DNA from: Candidatus Lloydbacteria bacterium RIFCSPLOWO2_01_FULL_50_20
Lineage (GTDB): Bacteria > Patescibacteriota > Minisyncoccia > Phycocordibacterales > UBA6899
DNA: 38,972 nucleotides
NCBI GenBank assembly: GCA_001821435.1
Contig: MHLP01000002.1
Location: forward strand, 1-38,972
Direction: 5' to 3'
Numbering within the stretch: position 1 is the stretch's first letter; the number at the start of each line of letters is the position of its first letter. Below the pieces are notes generated by a model. The model was not told the origin of the DNA. It was given only the letters and a program-made list of their open reading frames with translations, and did no database searches. Both the position numbers and the translations under genes were made by a program. Below, piece by piece: positions 1,616 to 17,349 of this stretch.

Positions 1616-2038
1616 GTGTTATACCAACCTGATGAGGGAACCGTCCTATTTTGCGACTTTGATGGTTTTGTTGAACCTGAAATAATAAAAAGTCGACCGG
1701 TAGTAGTCTTAAAGAAACACAGCACCAACAGCAAGTTGGTGACCATCGTGCCCCTAAGCACTACGGCCCCAACTCATGTCATGCCTTACCACTTTGAGTT
1801 TGTGAGCAATCCGGTACCGACGGCAAGAATGGGTGACATAACTTGGGCAAAATGTGACATGGTGGTGACGATTTCCCTGGAAAGGCTTGATAGATTCAAG
1901 ATTAAATCATATGGGAAACGAGAATATGTTGAGGGGCACATTTCTCGCGAAGATCTGGCCTCAATAAGGGAGTGCGTGGCAATCGCCCTTGGTTTGACCG
2001 AGAATATTGCTGATGAAAAAAAGCCTGTGGATAGCTAA
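1616..2038 (+). CDS. PemK/MazF-family toxin-like endoribonuclease
   Basis: A 140-residue protein with the beginning typical of this fold: GTVLFCDFDGF, then KSRPVVVLKK, TIVPLSTTAP and a C-terminal helix rich in RECVAIALG. The family cleaves RNA, usually mRNA, and is normally neutralised by a small protein antitoxin encoded just upstream. This member belongs to the longer 'CDFDGF...PVIV' branch often found in phages and mobile elements. The chosen start is GTG at 1616; there is no strong ribosome-binding site and no in-frame ATG nearby. Only about 180 bases separate it from the divergent gene at 1433, and no antitoxin-like frame is seen there. A structured RNA with a terminator follows directly downstream. 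Whether the protein is active cannot be judged from sequence alone. Confidence 0.85.
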   Translation: MLYQPDEGTVLFCDFDGFVEPEIIKSRPVVVLKKHSTNSKLVTIVPLSTTAPTHVMPYHFEFVSNPVPTARMGDITWAKCDMVVTISLERLDRFKIKSYGKREYVEGHISREDLASIRECVAIALGLTENIADEKKPVDS

Positions 2039-4052: not shown

Positions 4053-7000
4053 TCAAATAACTAATGAATTAAGAGCTTGCGCTACTTTTGCAATCTGGGC
4101 ATCCGAATCACGTTCCCAGTCTCGATGTGAGATGCGAACAAATCTCCAGCCAGCCCTTTCAAGAATCCCCTGTCGCCACACATCATAGAAGTTTTGCCTG
4201 TCTTTCATGTCGAAGTGAGTAGGTCCGTCACACTCTACTGCTACCCAGTTCTTACCATCTCCTGCAACAAGATCAATGGAGAACCCTGCTGCCTCATATT
4301 GTGGCCACACTTTCATGCCACTGCGTTCAAGCGCTTGTGCAACCTGCTCTTCAAATTTGGAATCGAAGATGCCTTGTGGTATTTCACTCACAGTACTACG
4401 AGCTGAGTGGAGGAGAAATTCTTTCAAAAGACCATTTGGGAGATCGTCCGGTGTGACCGATGACACGGCTATAAGCTTCTTCTTTGCGCGAGTAATTGAA
4501 ACATTAAATACATTTGGCTTTTCCAAGAAGTTAAGTGTTCCATGATGAAACTTCGGGTCGAGGGAGAGTGAGAGAATCACCACGTCTTTCTCATCTCCCT
4601 GGAGGCTGTGAGCAGTGCCCACTACAATCTTGTGGCGTTCTAATTCTGTAAGCGAAAGATAATTTGGAAGAGCCTTCGTTATTGCATTAACTTGGTCCCT
4701 AAAAGGAGAGAGGATGCCTATGGTGGTGGGCTTGTCGCTCGGTGATTGAGCGATCAATTGTTTTACGTGCTTGAAAATCGCCTCAATCTCTATGGGGTTG
4801 GCTGCACCCTCTGTTCGCTTACCTTTAACATAGTCGAGCTGTATCGCTGTTTCTTGCTCGGCAAGTCCCATTTTCGGTTTATGAGTCATGATGCGAATCT
4901 GATCTTCATAGAACATCTTGTTTGAGAAACCAATGATGTGTGGGTCGGAGCGGAAGTGCTCGTCAAGCATGAAGTAGTTCGCTTGAGGTACAAGGTTCTC
5001 TGCCACATCGAAGAGGCTATTTGTGGAGAATCTGTAGTTAGCTTGTATGTCTGGTGGAACATTGTTTTTTGCAAACGACGAATATTCCGCCTGTTTACCA
5101 AGAAAGACAACATGATTGAGCTGCTTTGGATCACCCACGATAAGTGCCCTGTTGGCGCGGTAGAGTGCGGGAATCGCCGAAGCAAGATCACACTGACTCG
5201 CCTCATCAAATATCACGAGGTCGAACATGCCTGGTTGGACCGGTAGGATTTGCGAGAGATGATATGTCGTACTTGCCCAACACGGGAACGATGCGAGAAG
5301 AGTATCTGTTTTTACCTGATCAAGAAGAGCGAGTTTCTCTCTAATATTTGCGGTGCGAAGAGACTTAACAAACTTCTTCAACTCAACACGCTTTTCATAA
5401 TTATGGACTATAAGGTGAAGGTTGCCGAGTAGTCGTGCCTTAAGATTATTAAGTGCAAGCTTTCTCAATTGAATTTTGAGAGATTGAATCTCCGTCCATA
5501 TTTGATCTACTGCGTCGAACTTGGCTATCTCTGCTTCAACCTCCTCACGTTCACGCTCATTTACTATGCGTTCAGCCATAAGTACGAGGTCCTGTGCTGT
5601 GGTGTTTTCAGGTGCACCCAACTGCAAGCGGATGCTCTTGATTGTTCGATCGCCCCACCACGTCTGAACAAAAAAGCCCTTATTACGTATTAATGCATCT
5701 GCTCCTTTAATTTTTTCTTTTAAGCGTGCGGCCTTTGCCTTTTTGAGCGAAAGACCGCCCGAGTCGAATTCAACATTAAGTCGAGAGTTTATTTCCTCAA
5801 TCTTGTCGTGTACCGAAGTCCAACTGCGCTCGTTGGTGATCGCTTCTGTAAACTCTTCTTCAAGTTCAGTGAGTTTGTTTTGTGCTATCTCGTGTTCTTT
5901 GATGGCCGCTTCAATATGATTTTTTTGGTAGGGATTTTCGTTTGCCGTGCTTTTGGGACCGGTAATCACATCGAGCTTATCTGCCAATGCTCTTTGCGCC
6001 TTTCGTGCCCCTGAACGCGCAACGGAGTAAGGACCGACGAACTCTTCTAGCCACGCAGACACAACATCAACGGCCTTATCCATTCTCGATACAAAAAGTA
6101 CTCGCTTGCCTCCAAGTAGGTGGTCGAGAATAATTGCAGCGATAGTGTATGACTTCCCAGTGCCAGGTGGCCCCGAAACGACGGTGAGGTTATTCTTTCT
6201 TGCATTCACTACAATCTTCTTTTGTGTGTCGCTCAGATCAAACGGAAAAAGGTTGTGCCAATTCCCGTCCTCTGGCTGTGTCGATTCTGAAAATCCGCTC
6301 GAGGTTTGATCTTCTACTGCTGATACCGGATTGCCTGCGGCGAGAGCATTTTCAAGCAGAAGAAAATCAAGTGCCGTTTTGTCTTTTGCGTTTATAAGAA
6401 TGTTGCTAAGCTCTTCCACTACCGTACCTTCTCCCTCTTGTTTGGGGGCAAGTATAAGGCAGTGTGCCGGACAAAGCTTATAGCCCTCTTTTTCACCCTC
6501 AATTGCATCAAACTCAACGAAGGACGAGGGATTTCCGTTCTCTTTAAATATCTCGGGAAAGTAATTGCTTAGGCTCTCGAAAAACTTCTGAACGCTATCA
6601 AACGTCAGTGGCCACTCGGGAATAGCCGAATACAAATCTTGAAAGCGTACTTCGAGTTCCTCGTCATTTTCTGCGCTCACCACCCCGGCAATAAGTGACT
6701 GGTTAAGGTGAACAGTGTCATCTTCCTTTAGGGTGAAGATCACACTGTCGGCCTCTGTTTTTTCAGCATCAACTTTTAGGTAGAGCAGGGGTGCATTGAT
6801 CTTGCTCGTGCGATTGCCATTACCTCTAAAACCTTTAACAAAAAGTGTGCCGATAATGATTTCAAACTCTGATGCCTGTGCTCTCACCTTATAGAGCATG
6901 TCGAGAGCTTCTTTGCTCTTCAGTTCAAATTTACCGTTCGCTAATTGCTCAAGAGCATTCGGCTTTAGGGGGATAAACGAGACATCACCAGTTGTAACGT

Positions 7001-7298
7001 CGGTTAGTGCGACTGAACGCATGATTGCCTGTGCGCAATCCTTCAAATAGCCGACGAGCGAAATAACCCGCTCTGATGCATTAGTGCGCTCCTGTTCTTC
7101 TGCAGTGAATTGTGCTACCAAATTCTCATCACTCAGCTTGCCCACGTTTACTTGCGTAGTATTCTCATCAAAACCACCTTTTTTCTCACAGTCTCCACAA
7201 ATCTGCCCGTACTTTACTTTTTTTTCTTTGCACACAATACAATGTGGCTTATTTGCCCAATATCTCTTCGCGTCAAATTGTCTTTGGTAACTGGCCAT
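4053..7298 (-). CDS. SF1 (DNA2/UPF1-like) helicase with zinc finger and C-terminal Vsr/DUF559-like nuclease
   Basis: About 1,081 residues from the ATG at 7298, which lies one base after the stop of the HTH gene; a TTG at 7358 in the same frame would overlap that gene by 59 bases. Order of parts: CIVC...CGDC zinc finger (about residues 20-37); a ~300-residue unassigned region; the helicase core with GPPGTGKS Walker A (about 376-383), VIFDEASQCD motif II, GDPKQL motif III, and NVSITRAKKK motif VI preceded by GTAHSLQGDE; a long coiled, insertion-like segment between motifs I and II; then a C-terminal nuclease domain (last ~90 residues) with FSIDLVAG and VAVECDGPTH, as in DUF559/Vsr-type endonucleases. 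Helicase-nuclease fusions of this sort are common in anti-phage loci and DNA repair. ATP-dependent DNA or RNA unwinding is expected; the target is unknown. Confidence 0.9.
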   Translation of the reverse strand: MASYQRQFDAKRYWANKPHCIVCKEKKVKYGQICGDCEKKGGFDENTTQVNVGKLSDENLVAQFTAEEQERTNASERVISLVGYLKDCAQAIMRSVALTDVTTGDVSFIPLKPNALEQLANGKFELKSKEALDMLYKVRAQASEFEIIIGTLFVKGFRGNGNRTSKINAPLLYLKVDAEKTEADSVIFTLKEDDTVHLNQSLIAGVVSAENDEELEVRFQDLYSAIPEWPLTFDSVQKFFESLSNYFPEIFKENGNPSSFVEFDAIEGEKEGYKLCPAHCLILAPKQEGEGTVVEELSNILINAKDKTALDFLLLENALAAGNPVSAVEDQTSSGFSESTQPEDGNWHNLFPFDLSDTQKKIVVNARKNNLTVVSGPPGTGKSYTIAAIILDHLLGGKRVLFVSRMDKAVDVVSAWLEEFVGPYSVARSGARKAQRALADKLDVITGPKSTANENPYQKNHIEAAIKEHEIAQNKLTELEEEFTEAITNERSWTSVHDKIEEINSRLNVEFDSGGLSLKKAKAARLKEKIKGADALIRNKGFFVQTWWGDRTIKSIRLQLGAPENTTAQDLVLMAERIVNEREREEVEAEIAKFDAVDQIWTEIQSLKIQLRKLALNNLKARLLGNLHLIVHNYEKRVELKKFVKSLRTANIREKLALLDQVKTDTLLASFPCWASTTYHLSQILPVQPGMFDLVIFDEASQCDLASAIPALYRANRALIVGDPKQLNHVVFLGKQAEYSSFAKNNVPPDIQANYRFSTNSLFDVAENLVPQANYFMLDEHFRSDPHIIGFSNKMFYEDQIRIMTHKPKMGLAEQETAIQLDYVKGKRTEGAANPIEIEAIFKHVKQLIAQSPSDKPTTIGILSPFRDQVNAITKALPNYLSLTELERHKIVVGTAHSLQGDEKDVVILSLSLDPKFHHGTLNFLEKPNVFNVSITRAKKKLIAVSSVTPDDLPNGLLKEFLLHSARSTVSEIPQGIFDSKFEEQVAQALERSGMKVWPQYEAAGFSIDLVAGDGKNWVAVECDGPTHFDMKDRQNFYDVWRQGILERAGWRFVRISHRDWERDSDAQIAKVAQALNSLVI

Positions 7299-7299
7299 A

Positions 7300-7479
7300 T
7301 CATTTAATAAGCTTGAGTACGTCGCTTTTTTTGAAACGGCGGTCTCCGCGATTCCCAAAACGTATCGCCCTTATGATTCCCTTATTATCCCAATTCCTTA
7401 GTGTATTGGGATGGCAGTTTAAAATCTCGCAAGCTTCTTGGAGAGTAAGAATATCCGGCTGTTTTTGTGAGTTTTTCAC
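7300..7479 (-). CDS. Small MerR/HTH_17-type DNA-binding regulator
   Basis: A 59-residue protein found by direct reading, GTG start at 7479 and TGA at 7300-7302, one base before the helicase ATG. The sequence has the excisionase-like winged HTH pattern: LTLQEACEILNCHPNTLRNW, then KGIIRAIRFGN and RRFKKSDVLKLI. This fold binds short palindromic or repeated sites. A perfect 21-base palindrome sits 6 bases upstream of its start, so autoregulation of the operon is the simplest reading. The lack of a clear ribosome-binding site fits a leaderless or very short leader. It could alternatively act as a recombination directionality factor, but the real xis candidate is beside the recombinase. Confidence 0.8.
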   Translation of the reverse strand: MKNSQKQPDILTLQEACEILNCHPNTLRNWDNKGIIRAIRFGNRGDRRFKKSDVLKLIK

Positions 7480-7535: not shown

Positions 7536-8084
7536 TTACAGTCCGATGATACACCCCTCTCCCTGTTTGTCCGTTAGCTCCTCGATGCTGTCGGATTGCT
7601 CCTTCGTAGTCGGTTGCACCCTCTGCTCGGGTTGTTTGTTGTGCTGAGCCCAGCTCTGCTCCTCCTCTTTTTTCGTTTCCTCAAATATGCCGGAGAAAAT
7701 GCTCACGAGTTTGTGTGTTCGTTTGTTTTCAGCAATCAGTTCCTGGATTCTCTCATAAACTAATCCACGTTTGTGAAGCATATCCTTTCCTGCTATCACG
7801 GAGCCAGTGGTGCCGACTTTGTAAAATGAGACAACAAATCCTTCCGCGTGAGTCAGTCCCTCATTCCAGTTTGACCACATGCGAGCGAACTTTTCTGCTG
7901 TTTGATGATTCGACGGCCAAGTTTTCTCTGTGTTCTCGATCCTTAAATACATGATGTTCTCTTCATATCGCTCGAGCTCAGATGCAATTCCCGCCCACAT
8001 CCTGTGCCATTTGTCATACCCTCGTATCGCTCTCGATGAAATTCTCCGAACTTCGTTCCTGGAGAGTGTCCCTGCGCTGTTCAT
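7536..8084 (-). CDS. Hypothetical protein
   Basis: 182 residues from the ATG at 8084; a GTG at 8126 would add 14 residues but lies against a hairpin and has no ribosome-binding site. The protein is hydrophilic, rich in W, E and R (RAIRGYDKWHRMWAGIASEL; RMWSNWNEGLTHAEGF), with a glutamine/glutamate-rich tail. No membrane segment or known domain. It is on the same strand as the helicase operon but separated from it by the palindrome at 7486-7506, so it is probably a separate unit reading towards that operon. Function unknown. Confidence 0.6.
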   Translation of the reverse strand: MNSAGTLSRNEVRRISSRAIRGYDKWHRMWAGIASELERYEENIMYLRIENTEKTWPSNHQTAEKFARMWSNWNEGLTHAEGFVVSFYKVGTTGSVIAGKDMLHKRGLVYERIQELIAENKRTHKLVSIFSGIFEETKKEEEQSWAQHNKQPEQRVQPTTKEQSDSIEELTDKQGEGCIIGL

Positions 8085-8326
8085 ATGTTTGTGTTTATTG
8101 GCTAAATAAAAACTCCGTCCGTACACAGGAAAGAGTTTCGACGTTATCTTTCCCCTGTCGGGGCTGGAGGCACCTTCTCACTGCTGAGGGTTGCCGGTGG
8201 GTCGTTGAGCCAGTCTCTCGCCACACTCTGGATAAAGCACTGTTTAATTGTCTGCGTGAGATATAACTATCGTCGCCGAGAAAGGTTTCGAAATCATTTC
8301 ACCCTGATTTTTGTGAATTAATCGTG
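8085..8326. other. Non-coding or decayed stretch with inverted repeats
   Basis: No convincing full gene. Hairpins: GGAAAGA (8128-8134) with TCTTTCC (8147-8153), and CCCC-TGTC-GGGG (8152-8163). On the minus strand a start-less frame ending near 8142 reads in part VARDWLNDPPATLSSEKVPP, which looks protein-like and may be a relic. A 17-codon ATG frame begins near 8300 on the minus strand. Nothing here can be assigned. Confidence 0.35.
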
Positions 8327-9927: not shown

Positions 9928-10920
9928 TTAATTAGGAAATACTGCATTTACATTTAAAATTCTTGCTAAAGACTCTAGACTCCCAGTCACGACAAAAGTT
10001 GGGATTCCCAAGTAACAGTTATTTTTGAGTGAAATTGCTACGCCACCCGAATTACCATGTTCAATTTTTGCTGAAGTTATGTAGTAATTTCCGTCATAGC
10101 CCGATATTATTCCGTCAGTTGCAGTTACATCATTTTGGTCACCAATTCCGGGATAACCAAGTATCAATACCTTTTCGCCTAATTCAGATTTACTTTTACA
10201 ATTATCACCCGATGTATTTTTTATAGTTTTGGTCATAAAAGGAGTCGGATCTTTTACAGTAATTAAAGCCCAATCTTCTTTATCTGAAACACCAAATGGG
10301 CTATCCTCTTTATAAACTGTTGCAAATTGAGTATCGCCCGGGATTTTAATATCACAAGAAGTTGGCCGAGCAGTAATGCCGAGTGGTTCTCCATAAAGAT
10401 TGTGAATAGGAACGTCCATTACGTGATTATTTGTTAGTATTATAATATCGCCATTTTGGGAGTCGTAACCCAATAAATATCCCGAACCAGATTGCTCTCC
10501 CATATTATTTCCCTCAAAAATAATTTTGCAATCAATAAAAGCAACTCTGGGTCTCCATTGTTTTATAATAGAGGTAGTATCACCAGAAGAAGGAGTATTT
10601 GATGGGTTGTCATAATCATGTGGTGCTATGGTTCCTTTTACGATTTCTGGCTTTCGGGTTTTAAGTGCCACAACTTCTCCTTTTAGTTTGGCAATTTCCG
10701 AATCCTGCTTTTTTCTTTCTTCCTCCGCCTCCACCTCTTTTTCATGCTGAATTTTTGATAGCTCTTGTGCCTTCAATCTCGCAGACACTTTTTCTTGCTG
10801 AAATTTTTGGTACTGATTTACGCCGAAGTATCCTCCGCCACCAACAGCTAAAACGCCCGCAATGATTGCGATGATAATTGGTATTTGGATAAATCCTTTT
10901 TTGAATTGATTTCTGATCAT
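9928..10920 (-). CDS. Membrane-anchored trypsin-like serine protease
   Basis: 330 residues from the ATG at 10920. Residues ~10-33 form a membrane anchor (GFIQIPIIIAIIAGVLAVGG), then a charged coiled coil (~38-90), then a chymotrypsin-fold protease domain. Catalytic residues are visible: His166 in TNNHVMDV, Asp216 in KEDWALI and Ser291 in HGNSGG. There is no PDZ domain, so it is smaller than DegP/HtrA. It would act outside the membrane, in envelope quality control or in processing a partner protein. The N-terminal style is common among exported CPR proteins. A folded leader lies between 10930 and 11026, 10 bases upstream of the start, and may control expression. Confidence 0.85.
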   Translation of the reverse strand: MIRNQFKKGFIQIPIIIAIIAGVLAVGGGGYFGVNQYQKFQQEKVSARLKAQELSKIQHEKEVEAEEERKKQDSEIAKLKGEVVALKTRKPEIVKGTIAPHDYDNPSNTPSSGDTTSIIKQWRPRVAFIDCKIIFEGNNMGEQSGSGYLLGYDSQNGDIIILTNNHVMDVPIHNLYGEPLGITARPTSCDIKIPGDTQFATVYKEDSPFGVSDKEDWALITVKDPTPFMTKTIKNTSGDNCKSKSELGEKVLILGYPGIGDQNDVTATDGIISGYDGNYYITSAKIEHGNSGGVAISLKNNCYLGIPTFVVTGSLESLARILNVNAVFPN

Positions 10921-10929
10921 GAAACACAA

Positions 10930-11026
10930 AACCCCGCGCTAGCTAGGCCTTGCGGCCACATACCGGTTTCCCGATATGACCCTTGGAAGAGTCGCTGAAC
11001 GCGGGGTTCAGTGTCTTCCAAGGGTC
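10930..11026 (-). promoter_or_regulatory. Strongly folded leader upstream of the protease gene
   Basis: On the plus strand: GACCCTTGGAAGA (10978-10990) pairs with TCTTCCAAGGGTC (11014-11026), 13 perfect pairs, containing a second stem CTGAAC (10995-11000)/GTTCAG (11006-11011). AACCCCGCG (10930-10938) is the perfect complement of CGCGGGGTT (11000-11008), which occupies the loop and part of the inner stem. GGCC-TTGC-GGCC and a CGG/CCG hairpin lie between them. Read as minus-strand RNA, the hairpin loop can pair with sequence just before the protease ATG, forming a pseudoknot or alternative fold. It could equally be a DNA structure such as an origin hairpin, or a plus-strand terminator, since TTTT follows at 11027. 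Confidence 0.55.
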
Positions 11027-11259
11027 TTTTAAGCCATGCTCAGCGGAGTTCCCGTAGAGTTTAGGCCCTCATTATTCAGTTGTAACTTCAATTCTATGCT
11101 TAACCACGGAAAATACCAAGGCACACCTAATATCAGAAAATATAAGAATTGGGGCAAAAACCTCGGAAAATCTCGAAATTCTGAGTTACGATGAGGACTC
11201 GGGGTGCCCCGGGCCATTGATTTGACCACTTTTGGGTGTAGGCTTGGAGTACTGAACAA
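11027..11259. other. Intergenic region without a recognised gene
   Basis: Separates the divergent protease and winged-helix genes. It contains two copies of CGGAAAAT (near 11106 and 11163) and a GC-rich block (GGGGTGCCCCGGGCC near 11200). A weak promoter (TTGATT ... TAGGCT) may serve the gene at 11260. It could also hold the element's replication origin because the replication genes lie just downstream; no clear iterons seen. Confidence 0.3.
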
Positions 11260-12324: not shown

Positions 12325-12483
12325 ATGCAGATCCCCCCGACAAAACTGGACGAATTCATCATGCTCTACGCAAAGCACTATGGAATTGTGTTGGAGGAAG
12401 CTGCTGCCCTTGAGAAGGCGACGAAACTTCTAAATTTTATAAGAATAATTGTGGGGACCCACAGAGAGAGCGATGGAAAGTAA
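12325..12483 (+). CDS. Conserved-looking 52-residue protein before the primase
   Basis: Found by direct reading: ATG at 12325, TAA at 12481-12483, overlapping the primase start at 12473 by 11 bases. The sequence pattern (KLDEFIMLYAKHYGIVLEE, then ALEKATKLLNFIRIIV) is a typical amphipathic two-helix small protein: 'EFI.LY...YGI.L....A.EKA.KLL.L'. I have the impression that such proteins recur in CPR and phage genomes, but this needs a search. The overlap suggests translational coupling to the primase. Confidence 0.65.
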   Translation: MQIPPTKLDEFIMLYAKHYGIVLEEAAALEKATKLLNFIRIIVGTHRESDGK

Positions 12484-14659
12484 ACTTAAAACGGTAGCAC
12501 TGGCATATCACGATAGGGGCTTTTCAGTAATACCCCTTGGGCTAAAAAGCAAGATACCTTTTCTTCCGAAGTGGCAGTGGTATTGCACGACGCGTTCAAC
12601 GCGCAAGGAAATTGAGGCGTGGTGGACTGAAAATCCGAATGCAAATATCGGTATCGCGTGCGGCCCAGCAAATGGTAAATTTCTGTTCGTTGTTGATCAG
12701 GACGTACTAAAAGATGCGAACAAAAAACCCATATTGAACGGGGATGGCAGTTTCAAGCAACGAGGTGACATCGGTGGCTGCCCGGCAACGGTGTGCCAGA
12801 CAACCGGGAGTGGTGGTAAACAGATGTTCTATTGGGCTCCAGAGGGCTATATCGTCCAGAACCACGTCGGCATACGTCCATTAATTGATATTCGAGGGAT
12901 GAACGGGCAGGTTGTGGTCCCACCTTCGATACACCCAAATGGGAAGCTGTACGCATGGGATATTGAGGAGATCGATCCCTTAAACATTACTGAGTTTCCG
13001 AAGGTGGCACTTGATGCATTTTTGGGCAGTCAAGATAAAACGGGGCAGAAAAAATGGGAAAAAGCTATAAGCGGGGTGACTCAAGGATCACGAAATGATA
13101 CAGCCGCATCTGTGGCAGGAAAAACACTTAGGGACCTGACTCCGCAACTGTGGGAACCTATTGGCTGGGCGGGTTTTGTAAACTGGAACAAAGAGAACAA
13201 CCCCCCGCTTCCACATGATGAATTACGGGGTGTGTGGGACAGCATTAAAAGTAGGAGGCTGGGTGGTCTTCTCACCGAAAACTCAGAGGATTTTAAAAAA
13301 CTTTACGGTGAAAATGACACAAGGAAAATTGGGGAATACAAAATTGCCAAGTTTCTTGCTGACCACCACCACATAAAAACTACGGATGAAAAAATCCGCG
13401 AAATATATTTTTATAAAGATGGGATCTACACATTGGGTGCAAATATCATCGGCGCTGAAATACAAAAGATTTTAGAGGAGCTGTGTAGTAATAACGGGAA
13501 AAAAGAAATAATTGAGAAGATCAAAGACTTTACGCTAACTGAAAGAAGCTCATTCTCCGTTAATGAGCATTTAATCAATCTTGAAAACGGAGTTTATGAT
13601 CTCCGGAGAGGTGAGCTCCTCAGTCATAGTCCGGAAAATCTCTTTTTGACTAAAATCCCCGTACGCTATGATCAATCGGCAGATTGCCCAAAGATTAAAT
13701 CGTTTCTTGCCGACATTCTTGATCCAGAGTCAATCAAGGTAATACAAGAATGGGCGGGTTACATCCTCTACCGAAGATACTTCATCAAAAAGGCAATTAT
13801 TTTTGTCGGGGAGCCGAATACCGGCAAAACGACACTCATCACCCTTCTAACCAAATTCGCTGGTGAAGCTAATGTCTCCGGAGTTAGCCTACAAAGAATA
13901 AGCAGCGACAAGTTTGCTGTCGCTCAAATGTACGCAAAACATTTGAATTTCTACGATGATCTCTCCGCTCGAGATATCAAAGATAACGGGATGTTCAAGA
14001 TTGCTGTCGGTGGAGGAAATATAACCGGCGAGTACAAATTCGGAAACCAATTTACCTTTCATAATTATGCAAAGTTAACTTTCGCATGTAACAAAATTCC
14101 TAGCGTGGCTGACACTACAGACGAAGCTTATTTTCTCAGGTGGATCGTCGTTTCGTTCAATGTACAAGTAGAAACACAAAACAAGTTTTTAATCGATGAA
14201 ATAACAACTGACGAAGAGTTGTCTGGTTTTCTCAACTTCGCTCTTGAAGGATTACAAAGAGTACTCAAGGCGCAATCAATTTCTTATGATAAAGATCCAG
14301 ACGACATAAAAATTGAGATGTTGAAGTCCGGGTCGTCGATAGGTAACTTTGTTTATGATTGTATCGAAGCGGGAGGGCCTGACGACTGGATCAGCAAGGA
14401 TGAAATGTATGATGCTTTTGTGTCCTACGCACATCAAAAAGGTCTGCCTGTGACATCACTAAACAACTTTGGGAGAAAGTTTCCGAGGCATGCGGACTAC
14501 GCAAGCGACGGGAAAAAGAGCATATATGACGCACTTGCCATGAAAAGTAGTCTGGCAACCGGTTGGCGTAACATACGATTCAAAGCCGGACATGAGGCTG
14601 ATCAGGGCAATCAGGGTTCTTTCGAAGACGCCATAGATACAGATGAAGAAACTATTTAA
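12473..14659 (+). CDS. P4-family primase-polymerase/helicase replication protein
   Basis: 728 residues from the ATG at 12473 (a TTG at 12449 in frame is less likely). N-terminal bifunctional primase-polymerase domain: RGFSVIPLG, WWTENPNANIGIACG, acidic pair in VVDQD (about Asp75, Asp77) and the histidine motif in PPSIHPNG (~154). A PriCT-like linker (GSRNDTAASVAGKTLRDLTP) follows at ~200-220. The C-terminal half is a D5/SF3 helicase: GEPNTGKTT Walker A (~446-454), NFYDDLSARD Walker B and FACNKIPSV sensor region. It would prime and unwind DNA for autonomous replication of the element. This architecture is typical of satellites such as P4 and of plasmids. Confidence 0.93.
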   Translation: MESKLKTVALAYHDRGFSVIPLGLKSKIPFLPKWQWYCTTRSTRKEIEAWWTENPNANIGIACGPANGKFLFVVDQDVLKDANKKPILNGDGSFKQRGDIGGCPATVCQTTGSGGKQMFYWAPEGYIVQNHVGIRPLIDIRGMNGQVVVPPSIHPNGKLYAWDIEEIDPLNITEFPKVALDAFLGSQDKTGQKKWEKAISGVTQGSRNDTAASVAGKTLRDLTPQLWEPIGWAGFVNWNKENNPPLPHDELRGVWDSIKSRRLGGLLTENSEDFKKLYGENDTRKIGEYKIAKFLADHHHIKTTDEKIREIYFYKDGIYTLGANIIGAEIQKILEELCSNNGKKEIIEKIKDFTLTERSSFSVNEHLINLENGVYDLRRGELLSHSPENLFLTKIPVRYDQSADCPKIKSFLADILDPESIKVIQEWAGYILYRRYFIKKAIIFVGEPNTGKTTLITLLTKFAGEANVSGVSLQRISSDKFAVAQMYAKHLNFYDDLSARDIKDNGMFKIAVGGGNITGEYKFGNQFTFHNYAKLTFACNKIPSVADTTDEAYFLRWIVVSFNVQVETQNKFLIDEITTDEELSGFLNFALEGLQRVLKAQSISYDKDPDDIKIEMLKSGSSIGNFVYDCIEAGGPDDWISKDEMYDAFVSYAHQKGLPVTSLNNFGRKFPRHADYASDGKKSIYDALAMKSSLATGWRNIRFKAGHEADQGNQGSFEDAIDTDEETI

Positions 14660-15697: not shown

Positions 15698-17302
15698 ATG
15701 AATCAAAACTCCAATAAAATCCGATACTTCCTCTATGCTCGCAAGTCGAGTGAAAGCGAGGAGAAGCAGGTTGCCTCTATTGAGTCGCAGATCACCGAGC
15801 TTGAGCGCCTGGCGAAGCAGTACGGGCTTACTGTGGTCCGTGTGTTCTCCGAGTCCAAGTCCGCAAAGGCCCCGCATAATCGCCCTGTGTTCGGCGAGAT
15901 GATGGAGCGCCTCTATAAAGGCGAGGCTGAAGGAATTCTCTGCTGGAAACTGGATCGCCTCGCAAGAAACCCCGTGGATGGCGGGACCATCAACTGGATA
16001 CTCCAAAACGGCATCGTGAAGCATATTCGCACGTTTGATCGCGAGTATCTCCCCACTGATAACGTACTGATGATGAGCGTGGAGTTTGGCATGGCGAATC
16101 AGTTTATCCGCGACCTCAGCTCGAACACGAAGCGCGGACTCAACTCAAAAGCAGAGAAGGGTGTGTTTCCGAGCCGAGCACCTATCGGATACCTGAACGA
16201 CAAATATCACCCCAAGGGAGAGAAGAAGATCATTCCTGACCCTGAGCGCTTCCCTATTCTTCGAAAGCTGTGGGACGAGCTACTGGAGAGAGAATGCACA
16301 ATTGAGACGCTTCACACGATTGCTAAGGAGAAATATCATCTCACGGGCATATTTGGAAAACCTATTGAGCGAAGTGTGATCTATGACATTTTCAAGAATC
16401 CATTTTATTCCGGCATGTTCAACTGGAACGGGAAAATTTGGCAAGGAACCCATGAAGCGATGATTTCAAAGGAAGAGTTTGAGCGGGCACAGCTAATAAT
16501 CTCTGGGAGGTCCAAGGGAGATAAAAAACGAAAACACAACTTTCCATTTGTTGGGACCATGCGCTGTGGTGAATGTGGGTGCATCATCACGGCAGAGTTT
16601 CACCGCAAGAAGCAGGTGAACGGCAATGTTCATGAGTACACCTTCTATCGTTGCTCAAAGCGGGTGGGGTCCACATGCAAACAGGCATTCGTCCGCTCAA
16701 CTGAGCTAGAGAAGCAGGTACTGAAAAAACTTGAGGAAGTAGAAATTCCTCATGACTTTTCGGAATGGGCACTTGGGTTGCTTCGCATTGAAACTGATAG
16801 AGACAAGGCGGGACGGGACCAGTTGCTGAGTAAGTTTCAAAATGACTACAACAAATGCCTCCAGCGTATTGATACTCTCAAAGATATGCGCATGAATAGA
16901 GAAATCGACTCCGAAGAGTTTGCAGTGAGAAAAACAGAGGTGGAAACAGAGAAGGACCGTATTCAGTCCTCCATCAACAAGCTCGACAAGCGAGTGAGTG
17001 AGCGATTGGCCGAGTTTGAAGAGAAGTTCAGCTTTGCAGAGACAGCCGTGGAGAAGTTCGAAAAGAATACCGAGAACAAGCGAACACTGCTTGTTTCACT
17101 GGGGACCAACTTCACCCTGCTCAATAAGGAATTGATCTTTGATTGGGAGGAGATCATGGCACAGGTTCGAACCGCATCAAAAGAAGCGAAGAAACTTCAC
17201 AAGGCGTTCGAACCTGTTAAAAACCGCTTTACTCCAAGGGATTATGCAGAAATGTACTCTGCAAGTCCGACAATGGGTGGTCGACGGGGATCGAACCCGT
17301 AA
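15698..17302 (+). CDS. Large serine recombinase (integrase)
   Basis: 534 residues. N-terminal resolvase domain: YFLYARKSSESEEKQ, with the catalytic Ser17 in the Y-x-R-x-S pattern, and LCWKLDRLARNP (~86-97). A recombinase domain (~150-270, NTKRGLNSKAEKG to NPFYSG) follows, then a zinc ribbon MRCGECGC...YRCSK (~288-320) and a long coiled coil (~380-455). It catalyses integration and excision through a covalent serine-DNA intermediate. The last ~9 residues (MGGRRGSNP) are read from the antisense strand of tRNA-His, and the stop lies inside that gene, so the protein C-terminus would change when the element excises or moves. This places one attachment site at the 3' end of the tRNA. Confidence 0.95.
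   Translation: MNQNSNKIRYFLYARKSSESEEKQVASIESQITELERLAKQYGLTVVRVFSESKSAKAPHNRPVFGEMMERLYKGEAEGILCWKLDRLARNPVDGGTINWILQNGIVKHIRTFDREYLPTDNVLMMSVEFGMANQFIRDLSSNTKRGLNSKAEKGVFPSRAPIGYLNDKYHPKGEKKIIPDPERFPILRKLWDELLERECTIETLHTIAKEKYHLTGIFGKPIERSVIYDIFKNPFYSGMFNWNGKIWQGTHEAMISKEEFERAQLIISGRSKGDKKRKHNFPFVGTMRCGECGCIITAEFHRKKQVNGNVHEYTFYRCSKRVGSTCKQAFVRSTELEKQVLKKLEEVEIPHDFSEWALGLLRIETDRDKAGRDQLLSKFQNDYNKCLQRIDTLKDMRMNREIDSEEFAVRKTEVETEKDRIQSSINKLDKRVSERLAEFEEKFSFAETAVEKFEKNTENKRTLLVSLGTNFTLLNKELIFDWEEIMAQVRTASKEAKKLHKAFEPVKNRFTPRDYAEMYSASPTMGGRRGSNP
17270..17302. other. Probable right attachment site at the tRNA-His 3' end
   Basis: The recombinase frame runs into the 3' part of tRNA-His (from 17276). 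An element end at a tRNA 3' terminus with the integrase directly beside it is a standard arrangement. The core is inferred; the second copy is not in the window, so its exact limits cannot be set. Confidence 0.55.
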
Positions 17303-17349
17303 CCGCTGGTTCCACAAACCAGAGCTCTACCACTTGAGCTACGACCACC
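17276..17349 (-). tRNA. tRNA-His (anticodon GTG)
   Basis: Read on the minus strand: an extra 5' G (position -1) opposite C73, the tRNA-His identity pair; acceptor stem GTGGTCG/CGACCAC; T8-A9; D stem GCTC/GAGC; anticodon stem CTGGT/ACCAG around the loop TTGTGGA with anticodon GTG; T stem ACGGG/CCCGT around TTCGATC. CCA is not encoded (C73 is followed by CAT). The cloverleaf is intact, so the insertion restored the gene. It overlaps the recombinase coding region by 27 bases on the opposite strand. Confidence 0.97.

What the first reader, a model, noticed from the sequence alone, without database searches (positions are those of the whole stretch)
10920..11026. Folded, possibly pseudoknotted leader before the membrane protease
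A 13-pair stem with an inner 6-pair stem is preceded (on the plus strand) by AACCCCGCG, a perfect complement to the loop side CGCGGGGTT. As minus-strand RNA the loop can pair with sequence immediately before the protease ATG, so that switching between stem and pairing could hide or expose the translation start. This is too ordered for chance. It could also be an origin-type DNA hairpin or a terminator reading right.
Basis: partly seen in the sequence, partly recalled or inferred. Interest (0 to 1): 0.6.

Follow-up and report, generated by a model that had tools for sequence, protein, structure and literature searches.

The report
LOOT RNA leader with conserved pseudoknot
The fold is a copy of a catalogued but unexplained RNA (LOOT) that sits in front of cargo genes of mobile elements in tiny Patescibacteria; comparing more than 100 copies shows a pseudoknot missing from the family model and, in some copies, a built-in way to cover the gene's start, so it is probably an RNA switch.

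Summary
The stem, inner stem and loop complement belong to a LOOT RNA (Rfam RF03000, 83.6 bits, gathering score 46.4) at 10945-11067, minus strand, directly before the protease gene. In 100 distinct LOOT copies the loop pairs with the strand just 3' of the Rfam model: 96.4% of cells pair, 11 of 15 pairs change on both sides, and no shuffled or slid control matches. The pseudoknot is conserved but lies outside the family model. In 119 of 120 copies a same-strand gene follows, usually with its ATG 45-75 nt downstream; these genes are very diverse. LOOT tends to lie 5' of a divergent large serine recombinase, so it looks like the leader of cargo genes of integrative elements. In roughly a fifth to a quarter of copies the hypervariable stem arm is repeated 0-9 nt before the cargo ATG, so the other arm can pair with either at near-equal energy. 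In 4 of 17 copies of the window's loop type a terminator and antiterminator overlap instead. Best reading: a cis-acting RNA switch. The window copy lacks both downstream parts; its pseudoknot strand lies 10-18 nt before the ATG. Trigger and direction of switching are unknown; no function has been tested.

The parts
11091..11119 (-). Promoter-like site TTGGTA-17-TAGAAT before the LOOT RNA
   Evidence: 9 of 12 matches; one such site is expected by chance in the region, so its weight comes from its position: one search finds an extended -10 at the same place in relatives
11073..11083 (-). ACAACTGAATA box, likely start of the transcript, not in the Rfam model
   Evidence: ACAAYTRAATA shared by 78 of 120 copies (at least 9 of 12 letters; 3 of 120 in a control region)
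10945..11067 (-). LOOT RNA (RF03000): P1, P2, P3 with GAAA loop, P4 with GCAA loop
   Evidence: 83.6 bits, gathering score 46.4; for pair conservation in relatives
10978..11026 (-). P2 hairpin: 13-pair hypervariable stem (P2a) with inner 6-pair stem (P2b)
11000..11008 (-). Pseudoknot, 5' strand: AACCCCGCG in the P2 loop
10930..10938 (-). Pseudoknot, 3' strand: CGCGGGGTT, 10-18 nt before the protease ATG; followed by TTGTGTTTC
   Evidence: lies 3' of the Rfam model
9928..10920 (-). Downstream gene: trypsin-like protease with N-terminal membrane segment, ATG at 10920-10918
   Evidence: Trypsin_2, E 2.2e-10
15698..17302 (+). Large serine recombinase, divergent and on the 5' side of LOOT; its 3' end overlaps tRNA-His (17275-17348)
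12449..14659 (+). Prim-Pol/D5-type primase-helicase of the same putative integrative element

Best explanation
The feature is the 5' leader of a cargo-gene transcript: a LOOT RNA with its own promoter, carried by a serine-recombinase integrative element in a Patescibacteria genome. It most likely works as a cis-acting RNA switch built on mutually exclusive pairings. The main stem and the loop/3'-strand pseudoknot compete with pairings that control the gene just downstream. In one type, the 3' arm of the main stem can leave its partner and pair with a copy of the 5' arm placed at the gene's start, covering it. In another type, the 3' strand, when not held by the pseudoknot, acts as antiterminator against an intrinsic terminator. 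In the window copy those downstream parts are missing and the pseudoknot strand itself lies 10-18 nt before the ATG, so the pseudoknot would cover the initiation region. Shown by comparison: the fold, the pseudoknot, the start box, the fixed place before genes, the recombinase link, the arm copies at start codons in a subset. Inferred: that these pairings switch expression, the direction of control, and any ligand or trigger.
For: Family membership. Pseudoknot: 96.4% paired cells, covariation 0.517 against 0.213 in shuffles and 0.05-0.13 when slid; repeated in 51 loci found without the model. Promoter and start box. 119 of 120 copies precede a same-strand ORF, 82 with the start at +45 to +75. 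Own-arm copy before the ATG: 22 of 119 at p<=0.01, 0 of 119 in a control region, forward sense only, on two consecutive genes in L146, balanced energies -17.5 and -17.0 kcal/mol and pairing probability 0.88 against 0.10 for swapped leaders when the 5' arm is blocked. Terminator overlapping the antiterminator in 4 of 17 copies of the window's loop type. Recombinase link.
Against: No expression or binding data exist here. Most copies have neither a recognisable start-codon tag nor a terminator, and the tag is rarer in the further loci (5 of 51 at p<=0.01). The window copy has neither. The full pseudoknot helix (12-20 pairs starting right after the P2a 5' arm) can hardly coexist with an intact P2a, so its exact form is unclear. 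The proposed logic differs between the two platform types.
Confidence: 0.6

Rival explanations
1. LOOT is a stand-alone small RNA that ends at the U-tract after the 3' strand and acts in trans: its element-specific 3' arm represses cargo mRNAs of the same or related elements, like an incompatibility or immunity RNA.
For: Rfam files LOOT as an sRNA gene. GGGCTTTTTG follows the pseudoknot strand in many copies. Arms are hypervariable and differ within one genome. Two genes in L146 carry the same tag.
Against: Tight fixed spacing to the next start codon and tags in the nearest leader point to cis action. No trans copy of the window's arm in its genome beyond the control level.
Confidence: 0.2
2. 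LOOT is a constitutive structured leader that protects the mRNA or helps its translation; the tags are by-products of how leaders are copied between cargo genes.
For: Most copies lack a recognisable tag. P2a is nearly free of G-U pairs, as template copying of arms might give.
Against: Tags end 0-9 nt before the ATG, in one orientation only, with balanced energies; terminator overlap in some copies.
Confidence: 0.12
3. The inverted repeat works as DNA: a recombinase-binding or operator site, a replication origin hairpin, or a terminator reading right.
For: P2a has almost no G-U pairs, as expected of a DNA dyad; LOOT lies near a recombinase.
Against: G-U is the commonest pair at several pseudoknot positions; P3 and P4 end in GNRA or UUCG loops; no arm copy near the recombinase side; no terminator-like site called at this stem on the plus strand.
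Confidence: 0.06

Closest known systems
LOOT RNA (Rfam RF03000)
   Same: Scores 83.6 bits over the full model; all four model hairpins present.
   Different: Adds a conserved pseudoknot with a strand outside the model, a start box, a cis position before genes, and in a subset a start-codon tag. Rfam classes it as an sRNA gene. No function stated in the papers readable here.
Riboswitches and attenuators with pseudoknots (general knowledge)
   Same: 5' leader, conserved fold, mutually exclusive pairings reaching an RBS or a terminator/antiterminator.
   Different: Controlled genes are extremely diverse, the key stem is hypervariable, and no ligand is known.
Plasmid copy-number or incompatibility antisense RNAs (general knowledge)
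   Same: Element-specific variable pairing segment on mobile DNA.
   Different: Same strand and upstream of the target rather than antisense-encoded; the target is a cargo gene start. Recalled, not tested.
Bridge RNAs and TnpB guide RNAs (general knowledge)
   Same: Structured RNA next to a recombinase gene with a variable segment matching nearby DNA.
   Different: Matches lie at cargo start codons, not near the recombinase side.

Membership tests
LOOT RNA (RF03000) | Covariance-model score above the gathering score over the whole model | tested here: met
   83.6 against 46.4 bits, model positions 1-121
LOOT RNA (RF03000) | P1 with CCUAAAC/GCAUGG, P2, P3 with GNRA loop, P4 | tested here: met
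   Alignment; pair counts in relatives
Pseudoknotted leader shared by LOOT copies | Loop pairs with the 3' strand, with compensatory changes | tested here: met
   present in the window
Riboswitch or attenuator | Leader position before a gene, own promoter | tested here: met
   (promoter by consensus and position only)
Riboswitch or attenuator | Mutually exclusive expression platform | tested here: inconclusive
   Found in subsets of relatives; in the window only the pseudoknot next to the ATG remains
Riboswitch or attenuator | Binds a ligand and changes expression | not testable with these tools
   Needs probing and reporter assays
Intrinsic terminator reading right | Short GC-rich hairpin followed by a T-run on the plus strand | tested here: not met
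   No terminator-like site called at 10978-11026 on the plus strand; only four T follow
Element-guiding RNA (bridge or TnpB type) | RNA segment matching the element end or target | tested here: inconclusive
   Arm copies lie at cargo start codons, none near the recombinase side beyond chance; element ends were not mapped

The most novel reading that the evidence does not exclude
LOOT RNAs are self-addressed switches of Patescibacteria mobile elements: a hypervariable stem carries a tag that is copied at the start codons of the element's own cargo genes, so one arm can be traded between the RNA's own stem and the gene start, giving each element private control of its cargo, in cis and perhaps in trans.
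Probability: 0.4. Interest if true: 0.75.

Novelty: new member of a known kind. Interest (0 to 1): 0.55.

Why it matters
LOOT is a structured RNA family with no function assigned in any source readable here, yet it is common in Patescibacteria: 157 of 397 genomes of the window's order and 81 of 380 of a phylum sample score over the cut-off. The pseudoknot, the start-codon tag and the recombinase context turn an orphan motif into a testable hypothesis, a leader switch for cargo genes of integrative elements, in bacteria that are mostly uncultivated.

Tried and rejected
Trans targets of the window's arm in its own genome: 12 hits with up to 2 mismatches, no more than the reversed-pattern control. 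Arm copies on the recombinase side: none beyond chance. Arm copies elsewhere in the window: none convincing. A direct repeat of the tRNA-His end within the window, as an att site might leave: none of 12 nt or more. Rfam hits other than LOOT at the site are far below their gathering scores, and no ribozyme family appears in the permissive scan. Letting the consensus predictor fold the extended alignment gave the pseudoknot helix instead of P2, because P2a is hypervariable; a model with P2a fixed by hand and without the pseudoknot was built so that the pseudoknot could be counted on an alignment not fitted to it. The 2017 paper that I believe described the motif (from memory) is not held; only passing mentions were found.

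Full report
Check of the observation. The reported elements are exactly where stated: stem 10978-10990/11014-11026, inner stem 10995-11000/11006-11011, and AACCCCGCG at 10930-10938 against CGCGGGGTT at 11000-11008. The minus-strand RNA folds far better than its shuffles (z -5.05), and the 9-nt complement is unlikely in so short a flank (19 of 20,000 mononucleotide shuffles).

Identity. Rfam finds one family at gathering level here: LOOT, RF03000, 10945-11067 minus, 83.6 bits. The finding is the P2 stem of a LOOT RNA plus a strand that the model does not contain. Papers readable here mention LOOT only in passing: as an example metagenomic family (PMC7779021), as a family with two covarying pairs added (PMC11701678), and for its many cross-covariations, with about 43 pairs in six helices (PMC7657543). 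None gives a function.

Distribution. LOOT scores over the cut-off in 157 of 397 genomes of the window's order and 81 of 380 of a phylum sample, with up to seven copies per genome, and never over the cut-off in the control genomes. Named genomes holding a promoter-plus-P1 pattern are Parcubacteria-type Patescibacteria (Taylor-, Nomura-, Yonath-, Zambryski-, Kaiser-, Adlerbacteria and others) wherever the title names a group.

The pseudoknot is conserved. In all 120 non-redundant copies the P2 loop pairs with its own 3' strand better than with the average 3' strand of the other copies. On an alignment of 100 copies fitted to P1-P4 but not to the pseudoknot, 15 pseudoknot pairs reach 96.4% paired cells; 11 of them have changes on both sides, and covariation is 0.517 against 0.213 in shuffles and 0.05-0.13 in slid versions. 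P1-P4 reach 97.5%. The pair columns were chosen on this same alignment, which inflates the percentage somewhat. In 51 further loci found by a DNA pattern, not by the model, the trend repeats (mean helix score: own 14.0, swapped 9.2, distant region 6.4). One caution: the complementarity is 12-20 nt long and starts directly after the P2a 5' arm, so the full helix and an intact P2a can hardly coexist; a shorter core pseudoknot or an exchange of strands is implied.

Leader anatomy. Upstream, 78 copies share ACAAYTRAATA with an extended -10 (TGnTATAAT) about 7 nt before it; the window has TTGGTA-17-TAGAAT and ACAACTGAATA. Downstream, 119 of 120 copies are followed by a same-strand ORF, with 82 starts at +45 to +75. 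The proteins are diverse: zinc-ribbon membrane proteins, DNA methylases, trypsin-like proteases, nucleases, lipoproteins; 73 of 119 have no relative within the set. Five of the other downstream proteins group with the window's protease by BLAST; three of the 106 scanned proteins match Trypsin_2, the window's included.

Start-codon tag. The P2a 5' arm differs between copies, even within one genome. In 22 of 119 copies the own arm matches the downstream leader better than 99% of the other copies' arms do (control region 0 of 119), and nearly all strong matches end 0-9 nt before an ATG, 32-54 nt after the LOOT 3' end. An excess of matches is seen in forward sense only and in the first 200 nt downstream only. 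In the same-genus locus L146, two consecutive genes carry the tag (CCCGCTAGAGCAAATT-ATG and CCCGCTAGAGCAATAT-ATG). In 26 tagged copies the P2a duplex and the 3'-arm:leader duplex have near-equal mean energies (-17.5 and -17.0 kcal/mol); with the 5' arm blocked, the arm:leader pairing forms with probability 0.88, against 0.10 for swapped leaders. In the further loci the tag is rarer (5 of 51 at p<=0.01, control 0).

Second type of platform. In 31 of 120 copies (p<=0.05 by swapping; about 6 expected) the 3' strand can also pair with a segment further down, P5. In 4 of 17 copies of the window's loop type, P5 overlaps the 5' half of an intrinsic terminator (GCCAGC...GCTGGTTTTTT), the usual terminator/antiterminator arrangement; control regions gave 0-2 of all copies. 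By energy the antiterminator dominates unless the 3' strand is held by the pseudoknot. This is inference from folding, not measurement.

Mobile context. In 41 genomes, 84 of 105 LOOT copies share a contig with a large serine recombinase domain. The nearest one is on LOOT's 5' side in 70 and divergent in 67 of those; 57 of 84 are within 5 kb. By my count of that listing, 50 of 105 are within 5 kb, upstream and divergent; with about 130 recombinase matches in about 35 Mb, random placement would give about 1%. The window has the same layout: recombinase 15698-17302 plus, overlapping tRNA-His, with a Prim-Pol/D5 protein (12449-14659) and a drop of GC from about 0.52 to about 0.44 on the element side. 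Element ends were not found.

The window copy. Its ATG lies at +24, directly after the 3' strand; P5 and the tag are missing, and no tag occurs elsewhere in the window or genome.

Verdict. Observation confirmed; family known; the pseudoknot well supported; switch function likely (0.6) but untested. The classing of LOOT as an sRNA gene may need to become cis-regulatory.

Noticed in passing
window 8141-8238 (-): SAM riboswitch (RF00162, 62.9 bits, gathering 44.4) before an unknown ORF (7536-8126, minus) on the element side of the window.
   Followed up: no
window 11073-11083 (-) and LOOT relatives: ACAAYTRAATA box at the presumed transcript start, nearly invariant in 78 copies and outside the Rfam model; role unexplained.
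   Followed up: partly
A3, P2a columns 54-66/119-131: P2a changes at almost every pair but has almost no G-U pairs, unlike the pseudoknot and P3; this may hint at constraint from a third strand or at template copying.
   Followed up: no
window 4053-7358 (-): Large protein with SF1-type AAA helicase domains and an MTES_1575 nuclease domain, defence-like, on the element side.
   Followed up: no
window 1616-2038 (+): MazF-like protein by PHROG match.
   Followed up: no
L219-L222: The LOOT promoter-plus-P1 pattern occurs in four IMG/VR contigs; one (L220) has a start-codon tag CCTATCAAG.
   Followed up: partly
L146 6900-7780 (-): Two consecutive cargo genes carry the same LOOT arm copy before their ATG.
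   Followed up: partly
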